64,000 nt of DNA. It comes from Terrimonas sp. (GTDB lineage Bacteria > Bacteroidota > Bacteroidia > Chitinophagales > Chitinophagaceae). The stretch covers positions 124,001 to 188,000 of the forward strand of contig NZ_QCZJ01000003.1 in the NCBI RefSeq assembly GCF_003075435.1. Direction: 5' to 3'. Each line of letters opens with the position of its first letter. The stretch's first letter is position 1. The notes beneath the pieces were generated by a model. That model made no database searches and was not told the origin of the DNA. It saw only the letters and a list, made by a program, of their open reading frames with translations. Positions 2,542 through 37,915 of the stretch are shown piece by piece. Position numbers and translations under genes: made by a program.

Positions 2542-2850
2542 CTATTTACCTGGTTGTTGGGGTTTGTTATCATCATCAAATTTATCTGTAATCCTGTCCC
2601 AAAGTTTTTTAGCGCCATCTTTCAGGTCATCTAATTTATCTTCAGCTTTATCCTTCCACTCACCGGCTGTTTTCTTCGTGTCTTCCCATATGTCTTCCGC
2701 TTTGTCTTCAACCTTATCCCATACTTTTTCCGCTTCATCTCCTGCTTTTTCTAATTTTTCGCTCGCTTTGCTTTTAAGTTCGTTTGCTTTATCGCTTAAT
2801 TTATCCGTCCAGTCTTTTTGGTCATTTGGATTGGTGTTATTGTCTGCCAT
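2542..2850 (-). CDS. LEA-like / YtxH-like amphipathic helical protein
   Basis: A 102-residue, very charged protein with no membrane segment or signal peptide. Its middle is built of degenerate 11-residue units with Lys, Asp, Glu and Ala in register (for example DKANELKSKASEKLEKAGD and DKVEDKAEDIWEDTKK). This is the pattern of group 3 late-embryogenesis-abundant proteins and similar bacterial stress proteins. Trp recurs at regular points (DWTDKL, KVWDKV, DIWEDT, GEWKDK, KLWDRI). By analogy it would be an intrinsically disordered protein that folds on drying or on membranes, protecting cell contents. That role is inferred from composition only. It stands alone, with a shared terminator at its 3' end. 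Confidence 0.7.
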   Translation of the reverse strand: MADNNTNPNDQKDWTDKLSDKANELKSKASEKLEKAGDEAEKVWDKVEDKAEDIWEDTKKTAGEWKDKAEDKLDDLKDGAKKLWDRITDKFDDDNKPQQPGK

Positions 2851-4840: not shown

Positions 4841-4848
4841 TATATTTG
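4841..4848 (+). promoter_or_regulatory. -7 promoter box for the PRiA4b-like gene
   Basis: TATATTTG matches TAnnTTTG, 36 nt before ATG 4885. It shows that the open frame extending back to 4846 is not translated there. Confidence 0.5.
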
Positions 4849-4884
4849 ATATCTTATAACAAACTCAACACCAAAACGTTAAAC

Positions 4885-5457
4885 ATGGCAGTTTTAAAAT
4901 TCAGGGTATATTTTGAGGAAGATGACAGTATTTACAGGGACATCGCCATAAAGCATACCCAATCTTTTCTCGACTTTCATTTTGCTATATTGAAAAGTTT
5001 TGAATTTGACAGTAAACACCAGGCTACTTTCTTTCGCAGCAATGATAACTGGCAAAAGGGCCGTGAGATCAGCGTTGAAAAATACGACAAGCTTTATAAG
5101 GTAGCTCCATTAATAATGGCTGATACAACTATAGGCTCAGAAATAAAGAATCCTAACGAGAAGTTTATGTATCTATATGACTTCAGCCGGAACTGGGGAT
5201 TTATGATTGAGCTGATCAACGTATCTAAAGATGAAAATCCCAAACTTAGTTATCCTGCTACTGTGCGCACTGAGGGTATAGCTCCCAGCCAATACGGAAC
5301 AAAAAGTGTTTTAGGCGATCGCTTTGTTGATGTAGAAGAAAAATATGATCTTACCAAAGTAGCAGAAGGGTTCGGTACCGAAGGTGATAGTGATGATGGT
5401 GATGGTGCGGAGGATGATGCAAATGAAGAAGAAGGAACGGGAGAGGAAGAGGTATAG
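4885..5457 (+). CDS. PRiA4b ORF-3-like protein (IS1096 TnpR-like family)
   Basis: About 190 residues, probably cytoplasmic. The body (1-150) resembles the plasmid pRiA4b ORF-3 / IS1096 passenger family: opening FRVYFEEDDSIYRDIAIKHTQSFLDFHFAIL, then a FEFDSKHQATFF strand, and the MYLYDFSRNWGFMIEL stretch equivalent to the family's YxYDFGDxW signature. The tail (about 160-190) is very acidic (Asp, Glu and Gly only in long runs) and probably disordered. The molecular function of the family is not known; members are found both beside mobile elements and as lone chromosomal genes. No transposase is seen here. ATG 4885 is chosen because a promoter box lies at 4841. Confidence 0.75.
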   Translation: MAVLKFRVYFEEDDSIYRDIAIKHTQSFLDFHFAILKSFEFDSKHQATFFRSNDNWQKGREISVEKYDKLYKVAPLIMADTTIGSEIKNPNEKFMYLYDFSRNWGFMIELINVSKDENPKLSYPATVRTEGIAPSQYGTKSVLGDRFVDVEEKYDLTKVAEGFGTEGDSDDGDGAEDDANEEEGTGEEEV

Positions 5458-5557
5458 TTTTGCTGTTGAGCCTATCAGGTTATATGCGTACTTTTCATCA
5501 GGCGAAAGAGAAGAAACGAACTTTTACATCTTGCATTTTTTGGCGTAGCACTGTGGG

Positions 5558-5950
5558 TTAATGAACAATAACTATCCATGTTGCACTCAGCCCGTATTTT
5601 TCCCTGTCTTCGCTTGCCTGTTTAATAACTTCATTAATACATGCTTCATCGTCAGGGAGACAGGTGTAAGTATAATTTGGGCCTGTGATTCCAAAATGCC
5701 GGGCGATGGCGCCACATACACTATTGGCTAATGTCCACGGAAATAATTCAGGGTTCGCAAATGCCGGTCCGTTCTTGATCACATCTTTCCAGAATGCCAG
5801 GGATGAATTAGTGCCGATATGATTTGATATTACGTAAAGCCCTGTTGTATCAGGATCAGCAGGTCTGCCCGGTTCCTTTTCCAGCGTTGCAATAATAGCA
5901 GGCATCGCTTCTTTCTCCTGCTGCGCTCCTATATGTACATGACAGATCAT
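5558..5950 (-). CDS. truncated ketosynthase-like protein (chain-length-factor-like fragment)
   Basis: About 130 residues. The core ISNHIGTNSSLAFW, FPWTLANSVCGAIARHFGITGPNYTYTC resembles the segment of beta-ketoacyl synthases just before the active-site Cys. The rest of the thiolase fold, including the nucleophile elbow and both His, is absent. Such short 'ketoacyl-synt_2-like' proteins accompany ketosynthases in aryl-polyene-type clusters as non-catalytic partners. It is the last gene of the leftward cluster and starts 8 nt after the ketosynthase stop if ATG 5950 is used, or overlaps it by 13 nt from ATG 5971. It probably binds or modulates the ketosynthase encoded upstream. No membrane segment. 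Confidence 0.65.
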   Translation of the reverse strand: MICHVHIGAQQEKEAMPAIIATLEKEPGRPADPDTTGLYVISNHIGTNSSLAFWKDVIKNGPAFANPELFPWTLANSVCGAIARHFGITGPNYTYTCLPDDEACINEVIKQASEDREKYGLSATWIVIVH

Positions 5951-5958
5951 CTTCAAAT

Positions 5959-7101
5959 TTAATACATGCACGAACCAAGTAACAAACTTGCGTTAAGTCC
6001 TCCAAAGGCTGATGCGTTATTTATAACCCAATTAATTTTTTTATGAACAGGTTGGGTAGTACAATCCAGTGCGATATCCGCATCCTGTATTGCATAGCCC
6101 GGCGTGGGAGGAATAGTTTGGGTGGCGATACCTTTTACACATATCGCCAGTTCAAGCGCGGAGGCAGCGCCGAGTGCATGACCGATAGCACCTTTACTGC
6201 CACTGAGCAAAGGCATGTTGGTTCTAAAAATATTTTTTAAGGCAATTGATTCCGCTGCGTCTGATACTCTTGTACCGCTGCCATGTATATTCACCCAATC
6301 TATGTCACCAGCATTAATGCCCGATTTTTTAAATGCTGCATTCATCGCATTAGTCAGACCTCTGCCATCAGGGTGCGGAGATGTGGGATGATATGCATCA
6401 CAGCTTAATCCTAATGCATGCACGGTGGCTAAAGTCATTGCGCCTCTTTTTACCGCATCATCCAGTCTTTCCACAATAAATATAGCCGCACCTTCGCCTA
6501 ACACCATGCCGGTTCTGTTAGCATCAAATGGTTTACAGCCATCAGCCGCCATTGCTCTTGATCTTGTAAACCCTACCATCGCTATTCTTGAAAACGGTTC
6601 CGCACCGCCGGCAATGGCAACATCTATATCGCCTCTTTGTAAAGCAGCCATTGCCGCGCCAACCGCATAGTTACCTGCAGTACAGGCAGTAGATAAAGCC
6701 TGTATCGGCCCAATAACCTGGTAAGTATCAGCAATAGCTTTAGCTATCGAAAAAGTATTGTATGCTTCAGGGTCAATAGGCTCACCTTCTGCCGCTAATT
6801 CGTAAGCCATACTTTCACCCAATGTGCTTCCTAAAAAAATGCCGGTATTTTTTGGTAGCTGAATATTTGATTGGGCTATTGCCTGCTTTGCCGCTTCAAG
6901 CGCCATACAGGCGCCGCGGGTAATTTGCTGTGCTTCAAAATCAGTTACTCTGCACGCGCTGGTATTTCTGTATCCTGCTGCCTCAAGATCGTTAAAATGC
7001 TGTAGTGATGTTTTACTGCTGAGTAAATTATTCCAGAGCACATCTATACCAATACCCAACGGAGAAACAACCCCAACACCTGTAATCACAATAGTATTCA
7101 T
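5959..7101 (-). CDS. beta-ketoacyl-ACP synthase (KAS I/II type)
   Basis: A 380-residue thiolase-fold condensing enzyme. The catalytic residues are in place: Cys140 in ALSTACTAGN, His273 in NIHGSGT, Lys303 and His308 in GSKGAIGHALGAA. The first His motif reads HGSGT rather than the usual HGTGT. It would join an acyl thioester to malonyl-ACP in the cytoplasm. It is about 35 residues shorter than FabF and distinct from the housekeeping fabF at 36662. Its start overlaps the ACP stop by 4 nt (ATGA), so the two are translationally coupled. No ketoreductase, dehydratase or thioesterase is nearby, so a full pathway is not encoded here. The product is unknown. Confidence 0.9.
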   Translation of the reverse strand: MNTIVITGVGVVSPLGIGIDVLWNNLLSSKTSLQHFNDLEAAGYRNTSACRVTDFEAQQITRGACMALEAAKQAIAQSNIQLPKNTGIFLGSTLGESMAYELAAEGEPIDPEAYNTFSIAKAIADTYQVIGPIQALSTACTAGNYAVGAAMAALQRGDIDVAIAGGAEPFSRIAMVGFTRSRAMAADGCKPFDANRTGMVLGEGAAIFIVERLDDAVKRGAMTLATVHALGLSCDAYHPTSPHPDGRGLTNAMNAAFKKSGINAGDIDWVNIHGSGTRVSDAAESIALKNIFRTNMPLLSGSKGAIGHALGAASALELAICVKGIATQTIPPTPGYAIQDADIALDCTTQPVHKKINWVINNASAFGGLNASLLLGSCMY

Positions 7102-7346
7102 ACCACTATCATTTTGCTGTGCAGGTATGCGGCCGTTGCATTTAATGAATACAGTTCCTTTAAATCTTTATCAGGAATAAGTATCTTAAAGGATTGTTCA
7201 ATTCTTGCTACAAATTCTACCAGTTCCAGGGAATCCAGTCCCCAGTCATCCCGGAAATTATCTGCATTACCAATGGCGGCAGATATTTGCGGCTTTACAT
7301 CGTATAGTGTGGTACGTAATTGTGCTATTATTTCATTTTGTTCCAT
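7098..7346 (-). CDS. acyl carrier protein of the 5.5-11.4 kb cluster
   Basis: An 82-residue carrier protein with the phosphopantetheine site GLDSLELVEF (Ser39). It is more divergent than the housekeeping AcpP at 36388 and shares only the helix II signature and the acidic character. It overlaps the following ketosynthase gene by 4 nt, so the pair is surely made together. A long-loop hairpin (7365-7466) separates it from the peptidase gene upstream and could weaken or break transcription between them. It should carry the acyl chain extended by the adjacent ketosynthase. Whether an acyl group is then passed to a protein or lipid is not shown by the sequence. Confidence 0.9.
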   Translation of the reverse strand: MEQNEIIAQLRTTLYDVKPQISAAIGNADNFRDDWGLDSLELVEFVARIEQSFKILIPDKDLKELYSLNATAAYLHSKMIVV

Positions 7347-7364
7347 AGTTGTTGTTTTGCTGTG

Positions 7365-7466
7365 AGCTATCAGCTATCAGCCTTCAGCGATTACTGTATG
7401 CTTACTATTCATTCCCGTTTTTTCCACTGCTAACTGCTAACTCCTGAAAACTGATAGCTGATAGCT
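7365..7466. repeat. long-loop inverted repeat, AGCTATCAGC family
   Basis: AGCTATCAGCTATCAG (7365-7380) and its exact complement CTGATAGCTGATAGCT (7451-7466) form a 16-bp stem with a 70-nt loop. The loop contains the echo GCTAACTGCTAACT. The right arm runs into the stop codon of the peptidase gene. Related structures lie at 22241-22341 and 49224-49331. Confidence 0.7.
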
Positions 7467-8394
7467 ATTCACTGACCACTATCTTTTTTGCCCTCTTTAT
7501 TCCCCCTGCATCAGTATACAGTGGCGCAAACGGATCGCCGATAATTCTGTAATGCTCCACTGCTTCAATATTGGGTGGCTCTGCGTGTATGAGCAGATCG
7601 CCCAGGTTATCTATACCTTCATTAACAGCGTCACAAATTCTTATCGCCCATTTCATATTATCTGTATGCCTTGTTTCACGCACCGCGCCAAATGCGGCAG
7701 CAGATATGCCCATCAGTGGCAATGATTCCGCATAGGAAAGCCCGGTTCGTTTACGGCTTGCCGTTTTGCAGCATAAAGATAGCATGCATCCCAACGGATT
7801 TCCTGTAAAGCTTTCAAAATGATGAGATCGCATGCCGTAATATCCAACCCAGCCAACTGATCTGCCATGGCCGAAATATATACCCATACCTAACCCGCAA
7901 CCCAAGGCATTCACCACGTCTTCCCTGGTAATAATATCCCCTGTCCATTTGAATACCGGAATGTTGTCTTCCAGGAGGTCAGTCATGCGCTGTGTAAGCC
8001 TTAAATACTGCGGATGCCATTGCGCCAGCAGCGCCATGCCAGGCACAGTATTTTTTCGCCGGTGCACTTTTTTTAATGTTTGTATGAACGGGAAAACATC
8101 GGTTTCTTCCTGTAAGGGAAGCCATGCTGCCGGTATCTTTTTTTTCTGTGTAAAAAGAAACGGACCATGCAGTACTGTAGAAGGCGCATACATTTTTTTA
8201 CCTGCTACTAAAACCGCGTCTACGTCTTCAGATAAAATTTGACGATAAAAATCCGGCGCAGGCGGACGTCCACTGTATTCAATGCATGTTGCATGTATAT
8301 TCAGCAGGCTATAAGCCTCCGACAGATATTTGCCTGCAAGGCGCATATCTGCCGGATAAACCAATAGCAAATGCCTGTTTTTATTAAGCTGCAT
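7465..8394 (-). CDS. cytoplasmic gingipain-like (C25 / caspase-fold) cysteine peptidase
   Basis: About 309 residues. MGIYFGHGRSVGWVG carries the catalytic His (His176 from this start) and LGCMLSLCCKTA the Cys (Cys209). Their spacing of 33 equals that of His211/Cys244 in gingipain RgpB. GLSYAESLPLMGISAAAFGAV and the late HYRIIGDPFAPLY also match the C25 pattern (E..L....GA.A and GDP). Unlike gingipains it has no signal peptide, no prodomain and no secretion C-terminal domain, so it should act in the cytoplasm. ATG 8394 follows an AGGA-like stretch; ATG 8415 is the alternative. Either way it overlaps the end of the large repeat protein, which makes that protein the obvious candidate partner or substrate. 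A CHAT-like assignment is possible, as the folds are related. Confidence 0.72.
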   Translation of the reverse strand: MQLNKNRHLLLVYPADMRLAGKYLSEAYSLLNIHATCIEYSGRPPAPDFYRQILSEDVDAVLVAGKKMYAPSTVLHGPFLFTQKKKIPAAWLPLQEETDVFPFIQTLKKVHRRKNTVPGMALLAQWHPQYLRLTQRMTDLLEDNIPVFKWTGDIITREDVVNALGCGLGMGIYFGHGRSVGWVGYYGMRSHHFESFTGNPLGCMLSLCCKTASRKRTGLSYAESLPLMGISAAAFGAVRETRHTDNMKWAIRICDAVNEGIDNLGDLLIHAEPPNIEAVEHYRIIGDPFAPLYTDAGGIKRAKKIVVSE

Positions 8395-11300
8395 CCGGTC
8401 TGTTTTCCTGTACATAATCTACATAAGGCTGCCATGCTTCATAATCTGCCGCGGGCCTCATCTGCAAATACCTTCTTACAAAATAATGCATGGTTATTTG
8501 TCCCTGCTGTTCCGGATTGAACGACATGAAATCGCCATCAGCTGCATCAAGCGCTGCTTCACCTCCCTGTCCGTCAATACGACCTGAAGCATCGGTGAAC
8601 GAATTACCGGCATAATCGCCGTTGGGTATTGTAATTGCCGCACCTTCTGTATAACCATAATTATATCCGGCTCCTGCCTGGCTTACTATAGCATGCGCCA
8701 TATAAATAGGACCTACATTCTGGTTCTGCCAAACATGTGTCATCTCATGTATTAATGATGATCTGCGTATCGGGCCGTCATCAGCATCAAAATTTATGAG
8801 GTTGCCTGTAACAAATGCCCTTGACTGCGGATTGCCTGTAAAGAAATCCTGGATGCCAAAGATGATGCTGTTGGTAGGGCTTTCAGTAGCGATATATACG
8901 GTATTAAAGTCAATAATATCTCCGAATATAAGCGTTGCGTCAGCTTTTTCCGCTTCAGTAAGATGGCGGAAGGAGTTGAGCATTTCCATCAATATAAACA
9001 CCGCTGTATCTAATAAACCGCCTGCTATCTCCAGTATGCCTTCCAGCATTGCTACTAAATCTTCGCCAATAGAAACCATAGAGCGTATAAACTCATCCAA
9101 AAATTCTTCGCCTGCATCAACAACTGCCTGAACAACCTGGTCCATTGTTTGCCCTAACTGGCGAGCCGCCTTAAGCAAATTGTCCATTGCCTGGTCTGGA
9201 TGAATAGCAGTTTCTATGATTAACTGTGCCAAAGTAATGCCTGCCTCAAACGCGCCACGCACCACTTCAAGCACCACTTCAAATGCTTTGCCTACCGTCC
9301 ACACTACTAGTTTTGCCAGTTTGAACCCGGCATTCAGCGCGCCTTTCACAAATTTTGCTACTCCAGGTATGAAATCTTTTTCAAGATAATTCAGCGCATA
9401 TACTATTGAATTGCCAAGCCGTTCCCACATGCCGGCAAGTTGTTCCAGCATTTCATCGCCGATTGTTATAGCCCAGTCAATTATTTCCGTAATGGCAGCG
9501 CCTACATTTTCCACTAATTGAATGATCTTTTCAAATACCGCGTTTGTTTGCTGTGCGGCCCATGTTAATACTTCTGAAATACTCTTCTTCACAAACCTGC
9601 ATGCTAAAATAGCTTCTCTCCATAATGCTGAAGCAAGATCTTCACCGCGGCTTATCAGCCAGTCGAGTACTTCGCCTACCGGACCAAGTGCCTGTAATAT
9701 ACCATTTACTACTTTGCGGAATATATAGTACGTTGTACCGACTACTGTTTCCAGTATTTCTGCAACAGTTTTACCAATTTGAAGTGCCGCATCAATCAGG
9801 CGGGCTGCGGTTCTGTATGTAAATTCAACAAGTGTTCTTGTAAATTCAAGAATTGTTTTTCCTAATTCAAAAGCGGATTTCAATACCTGCTTCAGCAGAT
9901 TCATGGCGATATTGAATACATCTTTAACCAGGTTAAGCATTGTTTTGCCCAGGTTAAAGAATGCCTGTACTACTTTCTTAATGGCGCTCAACGCATGTGT
10001 GGCAATGGTTTCAATTACTTCAAACAAAGTGCGGCCTGCCTGTAAAAGCCCGTCGAGCACTTTAGTTGCAATATCTATTGCTGCGGTGGCAATATATTTG
10101 GTAAACTCAATAATGGCCGTGCCAATACGAACCGCAGCATTCACCACTTCACGTACCAAGTTTATACCGGCACTCACCGCATTGTCAATAATATTGCCCA
10201 GTGTTCTGCCCAGGTCCATAAAAGAGCGGATGATAGTATCGAACAATGCGGAAGGACGTGTAATAGCAGTTATCAGGATCTCGCCAATGGTTTTGCCAAT
10301 TTCAAACAAAGCCTGCACAAAACTTTTTACCAATGTAAAGCCAAATTCAAGCGCTTTTTCAAGAATATTACCAATGCTTTTGCCAATTTCAATCAATGCT
10401 TCTACCGCTTTCTTTATAACATCAAATGTTTTTGTTGCAAGCCATGATACAAATTCTATTAACTGGCGGCCTAGCTGGTCTATGGCACGCAATACTGTAA
10501 TAAATGCATCCTTTACTAAATTAACGGCAGCATCCAGTACTTCAAACATAGCTTTGCCAATAGCGGTAATGCCGGCTATTATTTTCTTCACCAGTTCATA
10601 ACCTGTTTCAATAGCGGCAGAAATAAGATCAAAGATGGTTTTGCCCGCAGCTATCAGGGCTTCAACCAAACCCGCAACCGCATCGGCAGCCCAGTTTACC
10701 ACATCAACTATGGCCGCGGCAAGTGTTTCAACTGCATCAACAATAGCATCAACCACGGCATTGATAGCATTTACAATATCATCTGCCAGGTCTTCAAAAA
10801 ATTCAACTACTGCGTCATCCATATCTTCATGCTGCGGAGTTACTGTTTTTTTCCCCTGGGATTTTAATCGTTGCAATTCCAGTCCTGCATCTCTCAGCCA
10901 GAACAATACTTCATCAACGGCAGATTTATCAATGTTTTTTTTATCACCTACAAAATCTTTCATGATCACCCGCCCGTAACCTCTGGGCAACTGGCTGATG
11001 GCATGAACAACACCCCTTGCCTGCCCGGCTTTCCTGTAGCCGGTTATCAATGCTTTTCTTTCATCTTTTTTTAGATGGACAGCACCCTGGAATAATTCCC
11101 GGTGCTGCTGGTGATCCGGCAGGTTAATGGCATAAGACTCTGCTAATTTAATGGCATCCTGGTGAGATCTTTTATATACCCTGCTAAAAGCCGGTGCCAG
11201 TTCCACAGGTTTAAAATTGCCTTTCCTGATGGTAGCCTGTAATGCTTTTTTATTTCGGAACGATGTTTTTTCAAGTGATTTAACAAGCCTGTTGGTACCG

Positions 11301-11434
11301 GGAGCCATTTTGGTGATGTCCGGCAATGTTTTTAAAGATTTTTTTGATCGCGAAGCCTTGATCGATTTCTTTGCCGCTTTTGGCTTTGGTTTAGCTTTTT
11401 CAGCTTTTGCCCTTGTAGCTTTTTTACTTTTCAT
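8384..11434 (-). CDS. large 29-residue-repeat helical protein with C-terminal HEMTH zinc-peptidase-like domain
   Basis: 1016 residues. Residues 1-45 are very basic (Lys/Ala-rich) with no signal peptide. Residues 45-200 form a helical domain. From 205 to about 830 the protein is almost purely amphipathic helix. Residues 264-582 are eleven tandem units of exactly 29 residues, each opening with Gly-Lys/Arg-Thr or close variants (GKTIFDL, GKSIGNI, GRTLFEV, GKTMLNL, GKTVAEI). A further unit starts at GQTMDQV. The C-terminal part (about 840-1000) has HEMTHVWQ (His896, Glu897, His900), an HExxH zinc motif in a DUF4157-like setting (fTGNLINF before it). The family is not one I can name. It could be an effector, a membrane-acting protein or a scaffold; phage tape-measure proteins share the helical look, but no phage genes are near. 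It is first in the leftward cluster. Confidence 0.75.
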   Translation of the reverse strand: MKSKKATRAKAEKAKPKPKAAKKSIKASRSKKSLKTLPDITKMAPGTNRLVKSLEKTSFRNKKALQATIRKGNFKPVELAPAFSRVYKRSHQDAIKLAESYAINLPDHQQHRELFQGAVHLKKDERKALITGYRKAGQARGVVHAISQLPRGYGRVIMKDFVGDKKNIDKSAVDEVLFWLRDAGLELQRLKSQGKKTVTPQHEDMDDAVVEFFEDLADDIVNAINAVVDAIVDAVETLAAAIVDVVNWAADAVAGLVEALIAAGKTIFDLISAAIETGYELVKKIIAGITAIGKAMFEVLDAAVNLVKDAFITVLRAIDQLGRQLIEFVSWLATKTFDVIKKAVEALIEIGKSIGNILEKALEFGFTLVKSFVQALFEIGKTIGEILITAITRPSALFDTIIRSFMDLGRTLGNIIDNAVSAGINLVREVVNAAVRIGTAIIEFTKYIATAAIDIATKVLDGLLQAGRTLFEVIETIATHALSAIKKVVQAFFNLGKTMLNLVKDVFNIAMNLLKQVLKSAFELGKTILEFTRTLVEFTYRTAARLIDAALQIGKTVAEILETVVGTTYYIFRKVVNGILQALGPVGEVLDWLISRGEDLASALWREAILACRFVKKSISEVLTWAAQQTNAVFEKIIQLVENVGAAITEIIDWAITIGDEMLEQLAGMWERLGNSIVYALNYLEKDFIPGVAKFVKGALNAGFKLAKLVVWTVGKAFEVVLEVVRGAFEAGITLAQLIIETAIHPDQAMDNLLKAARQLGQTMDQVVQAVVDAGEEFLDEFIRSMVSIGEDLVAMLEGILEIAGGLLDTAVFILMEMLNSFRHLTEAEKADATLIFGDIIDFNTVYIATESPTNSIIFGIQDFFTGNPQSRAFVTGNLINFDADDGPIRRSSLIHEMTHVWQNQNVGPIYMAHAIVSQAGAGYNYGYTEGAAITIPNGDYAGNSFTDASGRIDGQGGEAALDAADGDFMSFNPEQQGQITMHYFVRRYLQMRPAADYEAWQPYVDYVQENRPDAA
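9689..10645 (-). repeat. eleven tandem 29-codon repeats inside the large protein
   Basis: Units start at residues 264, 293, 322, 351, 380, 409, 438, 467, 496, 525 and 554 of the 8384-11434 product, with no gain or loss in length. The rough consensus is G-K/R-T at positions 1-3, hydrophobic at 4, 7-8, 11, 18-19 and 22-23, basic at 20-21, Ala at 25, and Leu/Ile at 29. The DNA itself is diverged, so the repeat is old and kept at the protein level. Confidence 0.85.
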
Positions 11435-11492
11435 GGTAATGTATTTAAAGGAAAATGAAGTAGTGATGTTCCATTATAGTGCAACAGCATCA

Positions 11493-11511
11493 CATGATAG
11501 CTGCTATCATG
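11493..11511. promoter_or_regulatory. candidate operator palindrome
   Basis: An 8-3-8 perfect inverted repeat, CATGATAG-CTG-CTATCATG, 59 nt upstream of the large repeat protein. Size and symmetry suit a dimeric regulator, but no regulator gene is in the cluster. A small RNA hairpin is the alternative. Confidence 0.35.
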
Positions 11512-11728
11512 CATTGCTTTTAGATGAGGCAGGTGGGTAAAAGTTGTTGAGATACCAGCGATGAAAACATCAAAGATTAAATACCCCAAACAGGAATTTA
11601 CGATACATAAGAGAATGGATAGGCGCAGAAATTTACTTTGGTTACGGAGTATACAAGGGGAATACCGGGGTGGCACGAATCGGCAACTAATATACTTCAA
11701 AGAAATGGGCTGTGCAATAGCAGTTATA

Positions 11729-11736
11729 TAAATTTG
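11729..11736 (+). promoter_or_regulatory. -7 promoter box for miaA
   Basis: TAAATTTG matches TAnnTTTG, 55 nt before ATG 11792. Confidence 0.45.
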
Positions 11737-11791
11737 CATGGATGGTGAAATTCTTTATTGTATAACAAGATTGAACGATTAAGCATATTTC

Positions 11792-12706
11792 ATGGGGGAT
11801 AAAAAAACGTGTATTGTAATTGTTGGGCCAACTGCTTCAGGAAAAACAAAGCTTTCCCTGCAACTGGCTGAATATTTTAAAACAGATATTATATCCGCAG
11901 ATTCACGCCAGTGTTACCGGGAGTTGAATATAGGTGTGGCAAAGCCGGACGAAAAAGCGCTTGCAGAGATCAGGCATTATTTCATTAATTCACACTCCAT
12001 ACATGATGACGTAAATGCAGCGGTTTTTGAAACTTATGCTTTGACTGCGGCTGAAGCAATCTTTGCTGAAAAAGATTATGCTGTGGTGGTTGGCGGCACC
12101 GGTTTGTACATCAAAGCCTTTTGTGAGGGAATGGATGATATGCCGGATATTGACATCTCTGTGCGGGAATCGCTTCGCAATGAATATAACAGCAAAGGCA
12201 TTGATTGGCTGAAGGAAATGCTTAAAACGCATGATGCTTTGTTTTACAGTAGAGGAGAAATGTTAAATCCCCAGCGTATGTTGAGAGCGCTGGAGGTAAA
12301 ACTGTCAACCGGCAAATCGGTTCTTGCATTTCATACCGCTGAAAAAAAACAGCGCCCGTTCAATATTATTAAGGTTGGCATTGATGCTCCCCGTGAAGTG
12401 CTGTATGAGCAGGTAAACAAGCGGGTAGATATGATGATGGAAGCAGGTTTGGCTGAGGAAGTAAGATCGCTTAATGATCACCGTTATATCAACGCCTTGC
12501 AAACAGTGGGATATAAAGAGCTTTTTGAATATATAGATGGGAAAGTAAGCCTGGAAAAAGCAGTAGACAATATCAAACAAAATACCAGGCATTATGCCAA
12601 AAGGCAGATGACATGGTTCAGAAGGGATGAAGAGATAAAATGGTTAGGGAAGAACGCGGATGATTATATCCGCTTTGTTAATGACAGGAGAGGTTTAGTA
12701 AAATAG
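11792..12706 (+). CDS. miaA: tRNA dimethylallyltransferase
   Basis: 304 residues, normal for the family. It transfers a dimethylallyl group from DMAPP to N6 of A37 in tRNAs that read UNN codons, in the cytoplasm. Visible signatures are the P-loop VGPTASGKTKL near residues 12-22, the DSRQCYRELNIGVAKP segment that binds substrate, VVVGGTGLYIKAF, and the C-terminal helix with ALQTVGYKELFEY and KQNTRHYAKRQMTWFRRD, which contacts the tRNA. ATG 11792 is the first Met of the frame and lies just before the P-loop. It is transcribed away from the repeat-protein cluster and followed by a small membrane protein gene 72 nt on. Confidence 0.97.
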   Translation: MGDKKTCIVIVGPTASGKTKLSLQLAEYFKTDIISADSRQCYRELNIGVAKPDEKALAEIRHYFINSHSIHDDVNAAVFETYALTAAEAIFAEKDYAVVVGGTGLYIKAFCEGMDDMPDIDISVRESLRNEYNSKGIDWLKEMLKTHDALFYSRGEMLNPQRMLRALEVKLSTGKSVLAFHTAEKKQRPFNIIKVGIDAPREVLYEQVNKRVDMMMEAGLAEEVRSLNDHRYINALQTVGYKELFEYIDGKVSLEKAVDNIKQNTRHYAKRQMTWFRRDEEIKWLGKNADDYIRFVNDRRGLVK

Positions 12707-36387: not shown

Positions 36388-36624
36388 ATGTCTGACATTG
36401 CAACAAGAGTTAAAAAGATTATTGTTGACAAATTAGGTGTTGATGAAGCTGAGGTAACTCCCGAGGCATCTTTCACCAATGATCTCGGAGCTGATTCATT
36501 AGACACAGTAGAACTGATCATGGAATTCGAAAAAGAATTCAATATCTCCATTCCGGATGAGCAAGCTGAAACCATCACCACTGTTGGACAGTCTATCGCT
36601 TATCTCGAGGAGCATGCAAAGTAA
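36388..36624 (+). CDS. acpP: acyl carrier protein
   Basis: 78 residues, the classic housekeeping [23 protein letters not shown] contains the Ser that takes phosphopantetheine, and the protein is acidic as expected. It carries growing fatty acyl chains for type II synthesis in the cytoplasm. Directly upstream of fabF, the usual arrangement. Clearly distinct from the divergent ACP at 7098. Confidence 0.98.
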
Positions 36625-36661
36625 TTTTTTTCCTTTTAGCTGATCGCGGGCAAACTTGCTT

Positions 36662-37915
36662 ATGGATTTAAAACGAGTTGTTGTAACAGGCATTGGTGCC
36701 TTAACCCCATTGGGAAATTCTGTGCCGGAATACTGGCAGGGGCTCATTAATGGTGTGTCCGGGGCTGATGCAATTACGTTATTCGATGCATCTAAATTCA
36801 AAACAAGGTTTGCCTGCGAACTAAAGCAGTTTGACCCTACCAGCTTTTTAGATAAAAAGGAGGCAAGAAAAATTGACCGCTTTACACAAACTGCGCTGGT
36901 TTGCAGCGATGAAGCGGTGAAAAGCGCCGGCATAACGAAGGAAAATATTAATCCTGACCGTGTTGGTGTTATTTTTTCGAGCGGTATTGGAGGTTTAATA
37001 ACCTTTCAGCAGGAGGTAACCGAGTTTGCGCTTGGCGACGGCACTCCGCGTTTCAATCCCTTTTTTATTCCTAAAATGATACTTGATATTGCTGCGGGGC
37101 AAATATCTATGCGTCATGGATTCCGTGGTCCTAACTATGCTGTTGTTTCTGCATGCGCTTCATCTACCCATGCTATAATGGATGCCTTTAACCTGATAAG
37201 ACTGGACAAGGCTGATGCAATAATAGCAGGAGGAAGTGAAAGTGTGATACGGGAAGCCGGCGTTGGTGGCTTTAATGCCATGAAAGCTTTAAGTGAAAGA
37301 AATGACGATCCTAAAACAGCATCACGGCCGTTTGATAAAGATCGCGATGGTTTTGTAATAGGCGAAGGCGCGGGGATTTTGGTGCTTGAAAGCCTTGACC
37401 ATGCTATAAGCAGGGGCGCAAATATTATTTGTGAGATAGCGGGCGCAGGAGCTTCAGCAGATGCGCATCATATTACGGCTCCGCATCCAGAAGGGCTTGG
37501 TGCTAAAAATGTAATGACGGTTACATTGGCTGATGCCGGTATGAAACCTGAAGATATTGATTATATCAATGTGCACGGCACTTCTACACCGCTGGGTGAT
37601 ATTTCGGAAGTGAAAGCTATCCAGAGTGTATTTGGTGAGCATGCCTATAACCTGAATATCAGCTCTACCAAATCAATGACCGGGCACCTGCTTGGCGCTG
37701 CCGGTGTTATTGAAGCTATAGCCTGCGTAATGGCGGTTAGGGATGATATTGTTCCGCCCACCATCAACCATTTTACCGACGATCCGGACCTTGACCCAAA
37801 ACTGAATTTCACATTCTGGAAAGCACAAAAACGTACCGTGCGTGCCGCTTTGAGCAATACTTTCGGCTTTGGTGGTCATAATGCTTCTATCATCGTTAAG
37901 AAATATTCTGCCTGA
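36662..37915 (+). CDS. fabF: beta-ketoacyl-ACP synthase II
   Basis: 417 residues, full family length. The active site is in VVSACASSTHAIMDAFNLI (Cys), NVHGTSTPLGD (His) and STKSMTGHLLGAAG (Lys, His), and the oxyanion/gate GFGGHNAS is near the end. It elongates acyl-ACP with malonyl-ACP. ATG 36662 is chosen over a TTG at 36656. It is 37 nt after acpP and 190 nt before rnc, the common acpP-fabF-rnc order. Confidence 0.97.
   Translation: MDLKRVVVTGIGALTPLGNSVPEYWQGLINGVSGADAITLFDASKFKTRFACELKQFDPTSFLDKKEARKIDRFTQTALVCSDEAVKSAGITKENINPDRVGVIFSSGIGGLITFQQEVTEFALGDGTPRFNPFFIPKMILDIAAGQISMRHGFRGPNYAVVSACASSTHAIMDAFNLIRLDKADAIIAGGSESVIREAGVGGFNAMKALSERNDDPKTASRPFDKDRDGFVIGEGAGILVLESLDHAISRGANIICEIAGAGASADAHHITAPHPEGLGAKNVMTVTLADAGMKPEDIDYINVHGTSTPLGDISEVKAIQSVFGEHAYNLNISSTKSMTGHLLGAAGVIEAIACVMAVRDDIVPPTINHFTDDPDLDPKLNFTFWKAQKRTVRAALSNTFGFGGHNASIIVKKYSA

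What the first reader, a model, noticed from the sequence alone, without database searches (positions are those of the whole stretch)
5558..11434. Undescribed-looking cluster: 29-residue-repeat protein, cytoplasmic gingipain-like peptidase, private ACP and ketosynthase pair
Five leftward genes with overlaps (8384/8394, 7098/7101) form one unit that matches no pathway I know. A huge amphipathic-helix protein ending in an HExxH domain overlaps a C25-like cysteine peptidase lacking export signals. A dedicated carrier protein, a complete ketosynthase and a truncated ketosynthase follow. The hypothesis is that an acyl chain made by the ACP/ketosynthase pair modifies or gates the large helical protein, and that the peptidase cuts or activates it: a lipid- and protease-controlled membrane-acting effector. 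Seen: gene order, overlaps, catalytic motifs. Known: C25 and KAS motifs. Inferred: the shared function.
Basis: partly seen in the sequence, partly recalled or inferred. Interest (0 to 1): 0.8.

Follow-up and report, generated by a model that had tools for sequence, protein, structure and literature searches.

The report
Conserved rod-peptidase-ketosynthase gene unit
Five neighbouring bacterial genes that are gained or lost together encode a very long fixed-length helical protein with a zinc-peptidase end, a second peptidase and a private fatty-chain-building set; the set matches no system we could name, and what it does is still a hypothesis.

Summary
Five leftward genes (R, P, A, K, k; 5558-11434) keep the same order in 7 other Bacteroidota loci; all five are visible in 7 of the 8 loci. 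Here and in G004 the block sits between PRiA4 and miaA, which are neighbours in 7 of 8 same-genus non-carriers. Codon composition does not mark it as foreign.

R has a 610-residue amphipathic stretch in 29-residue register, constant to one residue in 7 full-length copies, and ends in a VgrG2b-type zinc-peptidase domain. P keeps the C25 His/Cys. A and K keep their active residues; k is half-size and ketosynthase-like, probably an inactive partner of K (analogy ApeO-ApeC).

R has the lowest dN of four genes compared, against an arms-race toxin. No injection-system or phage-tail family was found among the flanking proteins scanned. The mechanism (K-k-A make an acyl chain that acts on R; P processes R) is inference.

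The parts
8384..11434 (-). R: 1016 aa. Lys-rich hydrophilic tail (1-45), helical N-terminal domain (about 46-190), 610-residue amphipathic helical stretch in 29-residue register (about 206-815), C-terminal VgrG2b/eCIS_core-type zinc peptidase domain (about 822-1016; H896 E897 H900 E975)
7465..8415 (-). P: C25-family cysteine peptidase, H183 and C216; likely start ATG at 8394
7098..7346 (-). A: private acyl carrier protein, Ser39 in DSL motif
5959..7101 (-). K: complete FabF-like ketosynthase (C140, H273, K303, H308, F366), 31% identical to the true FabF of the same window and under the FabF cut-off itself
5558..5971 (-). k: half-size ketosynthase-like protein without a conserved nucleophile Cys (chain-length-factor-like); likely start ATG at 5950
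5458..5557 (.). left border of the block, after the PRiA4 gene (4846-5457)
   Evidence: PRiA4 and miaA adjacent in related genomes
11435..11791 (.). right border of the block: intergenic stretch before miaA (11792-12706); that it holds the promoter of R is presumed, not tested

Best explanation
A self-contained five-gene operon, gained or lost as a block. Shown from sequence: R (fixed-length amphipathic helical stretch plus VgrG2b-type zinc peptidase head), P (C25 cysteine peptidase), A (private ACP), K (complete ketosynthase) and k (half-size KS-like protein). Inferred: K and k form a KS/chain-length-factor heterodimer, as ApeO-ApeC does, and extend a chain on A, borrowing reductase and dehydratase from housekeeping fatty-acid synthesis. 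That specialised acyl chain is delivered to R, covalently or as a bound lipid, and helps the rod settle on a membrane or a lipid body. P, made from the overlapping next gene, cuts R at a defined site and so releases or activates the rod or its peptidase head. The product is an intracellular, lipid-dependent, protease-controlled helical machine rather than a fast-evolving secreted toxin.
For: Unit: same order in 8 loci; P and full-length R in the same 4 of 58 genomes; block between PRiA4 and miaA here and in G004, with those genes adjacent in 7 of 8 same-genus non-carriers and in G001, which carries the block elsewhere. Active residues invariant: R H896/E897/H900/E975 in 8 of 8, E975 aligned to VgrG2b E983 (that piece of the alignment scores only 4 bits); P H183/C216 in 8 of 8; A S39 in 7 of 7; K C140/H273/K303/H308 in 7 of 7. 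k: KS N-half by profile (11 of 14 PDB hits are KS) and fold rank (top 22 Foldseek hits are KS proteins, weak E from 0.073, many of them the same enzyme). R: one hydrophobic stripe in constant register over most of its length, 610 residues in 6 and 611 in 1 full-length copies. R has the lowest dN against L005 of the four genes compared (A was not compared there) and is more conserved than neighbouring MiaA (95/90/85% against 79/67/64% in L005, L011, L012).
Against: No acyltransferase, reductase or dehydratase is in the unit. Nothing shows that the acyl chain or P acts on R. R has no clear transmembrane segment (4 borderline windows); membrane binding was not tested. The AF2 model of R is poor (mean pLDDT 43), so rod geometry rests on sequence periodicity. 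The KS fold of k is weakly supported (pLDDT 71, best E 0.073; hhalign k against K probability 3.5%). Codon composition of the five genes is ordinary for the host (GC3 0.33-0.43 against 0.29-0.45 in 38 other frames), so it gives no support for recent transfer. The unit is rare (P in 1 of 395 phylum genomes, the own), so few independent comparisons exist.
Confidence: 0.4

Rival explanations
1. R is a tape-measure-like cargo or effector of the resident extracellular contractile injection system (CIS), encoded away from it; P and the acyl enzymes mature it before loading.
For: R's helical stretch matches phage tape measure proteins: many PHROG tail families; tblastn hits 17 phage records, 9 of the 10 listed annotated as tape measure, with some phages listed twice. 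The C-terminal domain is related to the eCIS core domain (over cut-off in 1 of 3 homologs scanned). Hydrophilic, positive N-terminus resembles reported eCIS signal features in part, but no aromatic residue is in its first eight (PMC11297309 passages). Known Tme effectors join tape-measure-like regions and DUF4157 (PMC11126660 passages). A CIS operon exists in the genome. A phage-like contig has a PhageMin_Tail protein two genes before a VgrG2b-like zincin.
Against: No CIS family among the flank proteins scanned. CIS sheath is as common in same-genus non-carriers (7 of 8) as in carriers (6 of 7). The zincin domain is C-terminal, while DUF4157 is N-terminal in Tme. Very slow evolution. Tape-measure likeness at 20-21% identity may be shared amphipathic composition; Phasin_2 also matches.
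Confidence: 0.15
2. An abortive-infection or cell-death unit: P senses a trigger, cuts R, and the freed amphipathic rod damages the membrane, in the manner of protease-activated gasdermins (recalled); the acyl group targets R to the membrane.
For: Protease plus large amphipathic protein in overlapping genes, patchy spread, presence/absence as a block.
Against: PADLOC has no match for any of the five at E 0.1. In the window the unit sits beside tRNA-processing genes (tRNA nucleotidyltransferase-like, miaA); no defence gene was recognised beside it. R is more conserved than MiaA, unusual for defence effectors.
Confidence: 0.15
3. A small biosynthetic cluster: K-k-A make a polyene- or lipid-like metabolite; R is a phasin- or apolipoprotein-like scaffold or coat for the hydrophobic product; the two peptidases mature the scaffold.
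For: K's best solved relatives are 9s5h_B and the ketosynthase 6kxd (6kxd is recalled as the ishigamide KS); Phasin_2 scores above its cut-off in 2 of 3 R homologs scanned.
Against: No reductase, dehydratase, ligase or export gene in the unit. The Phasin match may be composition. Two conserved peptidase active sites are more than a coat needs.
Confidence: 0.2

Closest known systems
VgrG2b C-terminal metallopeptidase (Pseudomonas aeruginosa, PDB 6h56; PMC6899460, passages seen)
   Same: R's last 200 residues match it (profile E 1e-5): HExxH plus a downstream Glu in an EQQG motif
   Different: No VgrG/PAAR part, no T6SS sheath (VipB 0 of 19 genomes); the next gene is a peptidase, not a small immunity gene; joined to a 610-residue helical stretch
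Tape-measure-related CIS effectors (Tme of Streptomyces davawensis, PMC11126660; also PMC13277306; passages seen)
   Same: Large protein joining a tape-measure-like helical part with a DUF4157-related HExxH domain
   Different: HExxH domain at the other end, no nuclease family matched, not in a CIS cluster, comes with peptidase and ketosynthase genes
ApeO-ApeC ketosynthase/chain length factor of aryl polyene synthesis (PMC8358021, passages seen)
   Same: A complete KS beside a half-size, one-thiolase-domain partner, plus ACP
   Different: k showed no match to PF13723 (Pfam scans) or to an ApeC chain (PDB profile search at E up to 1); no KR, DH or other ape genes in the unit
Peptidase family C25 (gingipain RgpB, PorU)
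   Same: His and Cys align with gingipain R2; Pfam score 24.6 over cut-off 23
   Different: 316 aa, no evident export signal; a separate C25 protein in a 1690-aa frame exists in the same genome, PorU-like by size but not verified
RTX toxins acylated from acyl-ACP (recalled, no call)
   Same: The idea of an ACP-borne acyl group arming a large membrane-acting protein
   Different: No RTX repeat family matched R; no acyltransferase family matched among the five genes; export genes not tested for

Membership tests
Tme-type CIS effector | DUF4157 domain in the N-terminal region | tested here: not met
   HExxH domain lies at residues about 822-1016 of 1016; eCIS_core 13.4, 20.0 and 22.4 bits against cut-off 22 in three homologs
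Tme-type CIS effector | Encoded within the CIS gene cluster | tested here: not met
   No CIS family among 9 window neighbours and 21 flank proteins scanned; own CIS is on contig C1, unit on C3
Tme-type CIS effector | Similarity to phage tape measure proteins | tested here: met
   PHROG tail families to E 4e-22; phage tblastn; may be composition
VgrG2b-type metallopeptidase domain | HExxH plus Glu zinc ligand | tested here: met
   the Glu is placed by a weak 4-bit alignment piece and the 48-residue spacing in VgrG2b
VgrG2b T6SS effector | Carried by a type VI system with adjacent small immunity gene | tested here: not met
   VipB 0 of 19 genomes; next gene is P
Peptidase family C25 | Profile match and His/Cys pair | tested here: met
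Secreted gingipain/PorU | Export signal and T9SS C-terminal domain | tested here: inconclusive
   None seen by eye in 316 aa; no sorting-domain Pfam match; no signal predictor run
KS/chain-length-factor pair (ApeO-ApeC-like) | Complete KS plus KS-fold partner lacking the catalytic Cys | tested here: inconclusive
   K complete; k weakly KS-like, Cys absent in 3 of 7; heterodimer not testable here
Aryl polyene gene cluster | Own ketoreductase and dehydratases | tested here: not met
   Unit is five genes in differing flanks; none of these among the flank proteins scanned
Phasin | Phasin_2 profile | tested here: inconclusive
   50.7 and 31.3 bits over, 19.7 under cut-off 24.9
Phasin | Linked PHA synthesis genes | tested here: not met
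   None among the five genes
Known anti-phage system | PADLOC model match | tested here: not met
   0 of 5 proteins

The most novel reading that the evidence does not exclude
A new kind of lipid- and protease-controlled molecular machine: a fixed-length (about 90 nm if one continuous helix) amphipathic rod with a zinc-peptidase head, charged with a dedicated acyl chain made by a miniature KS/half-CLF/ACP synthase and released by a C25 peptidase, inherited and exchanged among Bacteroidota as one five-gene block.
Probability: 0.25. Interest if true: 0.85.

Novelty: categorically new. Interest (0 to 1): 0.6.

Why it matters
If true, it links three separate fields (tape-measure/eCIS-type zinc peptidases, C25 peptidases, KS/chain-length-factor chemistry) in one small unit in which lipid charging and proteolytic control of a giant helical protein can be tested. 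Even without the mechanism, a 21-repeat array whose length varies by at most one residue across divergent hosts asks for an explanation: repeat arrays commonly shrink and grow (general knowledge, no call).

Tried and rejected
Composition: one search seemed to show raised GC3 in the five genes. Checking showed that the script had read codon position 1 for minus-strand genes. The true GC3 values (0.33-0.43) lie within those of 38 other window frames (0.29-0.45, median 0.37), so the claim is withdrawn. My belief that the five genes are one functional unit goes from 0.95 to 0.9 for this; the other odds do not rest on it. Phage or plasmid origin: P has no match in the 72,556 plasmid records and was confirmed in no viral contig; R has no plasmid match; its listed phage hits are tape measure proteins plus one unannotated record (7 of 17 not listed), and its two viral-contig loci are a tail protein near a VgrG2b-like domain and a PAAR-like protein. 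T6SS: rejected. Defence library: no match. Border repeats: none linking the borders seen, but each border stretch was searched separately. Foldseek of the R model gave designed helical repeats first and is meaningless at pLDDT 43. k as a pseudogene: rejected on conservation; dS was saturated or not computable for several pairs. k profile hits in 3 other phylum genomes look like ordinary full-length FabF by eye. Literature: no paper linking these parts was seen in the listings (held PMC library only, lists capped; one search matched 2,188 papers, 8 listed); 9s5h was not found as a term. In one search the gap measurement failed for 4 of 8 loci (upstream stop taken); for those the alignment ends were used.
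Full report
Observation. The five frames exist as described: R 8384-11434 (1016 aa), P 7465-8415, A 7098-7346, K 5959-7101 and k 5558-5971, all leftward. P most likely starts at 8394 and k at 5950, judged from the homologs.

One unit. A scan of genome contigs with P found 7 loci. Three are contigs of the same-genus genomes G004, G001 and G008; the others are L011 (Bacteroidetes MAG), L013 and L014 (Saprospiraceae MAGs) and L015 (groundwater Bacteroidetes MAG). With the window that is 8 loci. All five genes in the same order are visible in 7 of 8; in L014 R is cut by the contig end. L006 shows R, P, A and part of K before its contig ends (the ACP of L005, missed by the ORF filter, was confirmed). 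Identity to the window's proteins falls in step: L013 60/50/48/53/41% and L015 57/40/47/50/32% for R/P/A/K/k. Among 58 related genomes P occurs in 4 and full-length R in the same 4; a fifth R hit, in G054, is only the zinc-peptidase domain in a 357-aa frame. In evenly drawn phylum genomes P occurs in 1 of 395, the own; in the order of carrier G446 in 2 of 248; (1 of 198) repeats one of these. The unit is rare and patchy.

Gained or lost as a block. miaA is present in 12 of 12 genomes of the genus. In the window and in G004 the unit lies between the PRiA4 gene and miaA; in L011 and L012 it also adjoins miaA. In 7 of 8 non-carriers (G002, G003, G005, G006, G009, G010, G011) and in G001, which carries the unit on another contig, PRiA4 and miaA are neighbours within about 150 bp (alignment ends; 52-82 bp where the gap could be measured). 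The eighth non-carrier, G007, shows miaA without PRiA4 in the stretch held. This may be insertion or deletion; either way the five genes go together, and the other site in G001 and the different flanks of L013-L015 show that the block has more than one location. A first reading of raised GC3 was a script error: corrected GC3 is 0.384, 0.344, 0.325, 0.429 and 0.380 for k, K, A, P and R against a median of 0.373 (0.288-0.452) in 38 other frames. Composition therefore gives no sign of recent transfer. No repeats linking the borders were seen (each border was searched on its own).

R. Lag-29 identity is 108 of 566 against 0.08 expected. Residues 206-815 have one hydrophobic stripe of period 3.63 (29/8), power 134 against at most 7.6 in 200 shuffles; its phase lies between 35 and 59 degrees in the 58-residue windows starting at 206 to 612, then drifts to -24 and comes back to 27. 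The length of this stretch is 610 in 6 of 7 full-length copies and 611 in the seventh, although the most distant copies share only 57-60% identity over R; L014 is partial (470 of 470 comparable residues). AF2 gave long helices at pLDDT near 40; only the N-terminal helical domain (about 50-190) is moderately confident. The C-terminal domain matches the VgrG2b effector domain 6h56 (E 1e-5). VgrG2b's zinc ligands H935, H939 and E983 (PMC6899460 passages) correspond to H896, H900 and E975; these and E897 are invariant in 8 of 8. E983 was placed by its 48-residue distance from H935 and falls in a weak (4-bit) piece of the alignment. The helical stretch resembles tape measure proteins and Phasin_2, which may reflect composition.

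P, A, K, k. P passes the C25 cut-off (24.6 against 23; 37.5 in L015); H183 and C216 align with a His and Cys of gingipain R2 (E 0.02; their catalytic role is recalled) and are invariant in 8 of 8. K keeps Cys-His-Lys-His and the gating Phe in 7 of 7 (roles recalled). It scores 279 bits to the FabF model, under its cut-off of 494, while the FabF at 36656-37915 of the same window scores 597. That FabF is K's nearest paralog in the genome: 31% in a pairwise alignment, 33% in the genome search, which found 6 paralogs. A is 37% identical over 51 residues to the standard ACP at 36388-36624. k matches the N-terminal half of ketosynthases weakly but consistently: 11 of 14 PDB profile hits are KS (best E 0.007), the top 22 Foldseek hits are KS proteins, many of them repeats of the same enzyme (best E 0.073, TM-score over the query 0.26-0.44; model pLDDT 71), hhalign against K gives E 0.012 but probability 3.5%, and three off-target genome hits are full-length KS frames. 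Its Cys at the nucleophile place is absent in 3 of 7 copies. [quoted passage not shown] k is best read that way, although it matched neither PF13723 nor an ApeC chain in the searches made.

Rates. dN between window and L005 is 0.02-0.03 for R, 0.08 for P, 0.07 for K and 0.10 for k, with dS 0.7-1.4 (A was not compared in that pair). R (95, 90, 85%) is more conserved than MiaA (79, 67, 64%) in L005, L011 and L012. A protein in an arms race would not be expected to look like this, and I recognised no immunity gene.

Context. A CIS operon lies elsewhere in the genome, with four successive frames with HELxHV-type motifs at its end (read by eye; sheath by profile). Sheath genes occur in 16 of 19 genomes searched: 6 of 7 carriers and 7 of 8 same-genus non-carriers, so they do not track the unit. 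VipB is in 0 of 19. Domains distantly like R's end occur in 7 of 395 phylum genomes including the own, in frames of 205-752 aa in the other six; in two (G077, G228) they are on the same contig as a CIS sheath, 16-20 kb away. Of the flanking proteins, 9 in the window and 21 in other loci were scanned with Pfam: housekeeping, transport, sigma-factor and similar families, 2 without a match, and no CIS, T6SS or phage-tail family. The gene after the unit in L015 carries a T9SS sorting domain, and an AAA/ClpB-like protein lies before it; neither was seen among the scanned flanks of the other loci.

Mechanism. Shown: gene order, joint presence and absence, conserved active sites, register and length of R's helical stretch. 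Inferred: K-k pairing, acyl synthesis on A, delivery to R, cleavage by P, membrane or lipid binding. My confidence in the inferred chain is 0.4; the claim that the five genes are one functional unit I hold at about 0.9.

Novelty. The parts are known; no system definition tested fits the whole, and the literature listings named under Tried and rejected showed nothing joining them. They cover the open PMC library only, so 'categorically new' is a judgement at the level of the whole unit, not of its parts. Papers seen as passages only: PMC11126660, PMC13277306, PMC6899460, PMC11297309, PMC8213781, PMC8358021; no paper was read whole.

Noticed in passing
G000 contig C1 about 155600-181000 (L038 11635-19001, L039 1-18000): A CIS operon in the window's own genome with four successive HELxHV-type frames at its end, likely ordinary eCIS cargo (by eye; sheath by profile).
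   Followed up: partly
L071 1970-5661 (IMG/VR contig): A phage-like contig with a 797-aa PhageMin_Tail protein (61 bits) and, two genes on, a stand-alone VgrG2b-like zinc peptidase of 192 aa.
   Followed up: partly
L072 1462-2730: A PAAR-like protein (by eye) ending in a VgrG2b-like HEMTHVWQ domain followed by a small gene, like described T6SS effector-immunity pairs.
   Followed up: no
L022 8993-10066 (G054): Orphan 357-aa protein: hydrophobic helical N-terminus plus the same zinc-peptidase domain as R; no P-like or ketosynthase frame was seen in the 19 kb read.
   Followed up: partly
window 2542-2850 (-): 102-aa charged amphipathic protein with weak apolipoprotein/YtxH-like matches, below the cut-offs.
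   Followed up: no
window 11435-11791 and L005 6784-7248: The stretch between R and miaA keeps similar DNA in two genomes (by eye), possibly a shared promoter or small RNA.
   Followed up: no
L013 3241-4635 (-): HMG-CoA-synthase-like gene divergent from the unit in the Saprospiraceae locus; could be chance.
   Followed up: no
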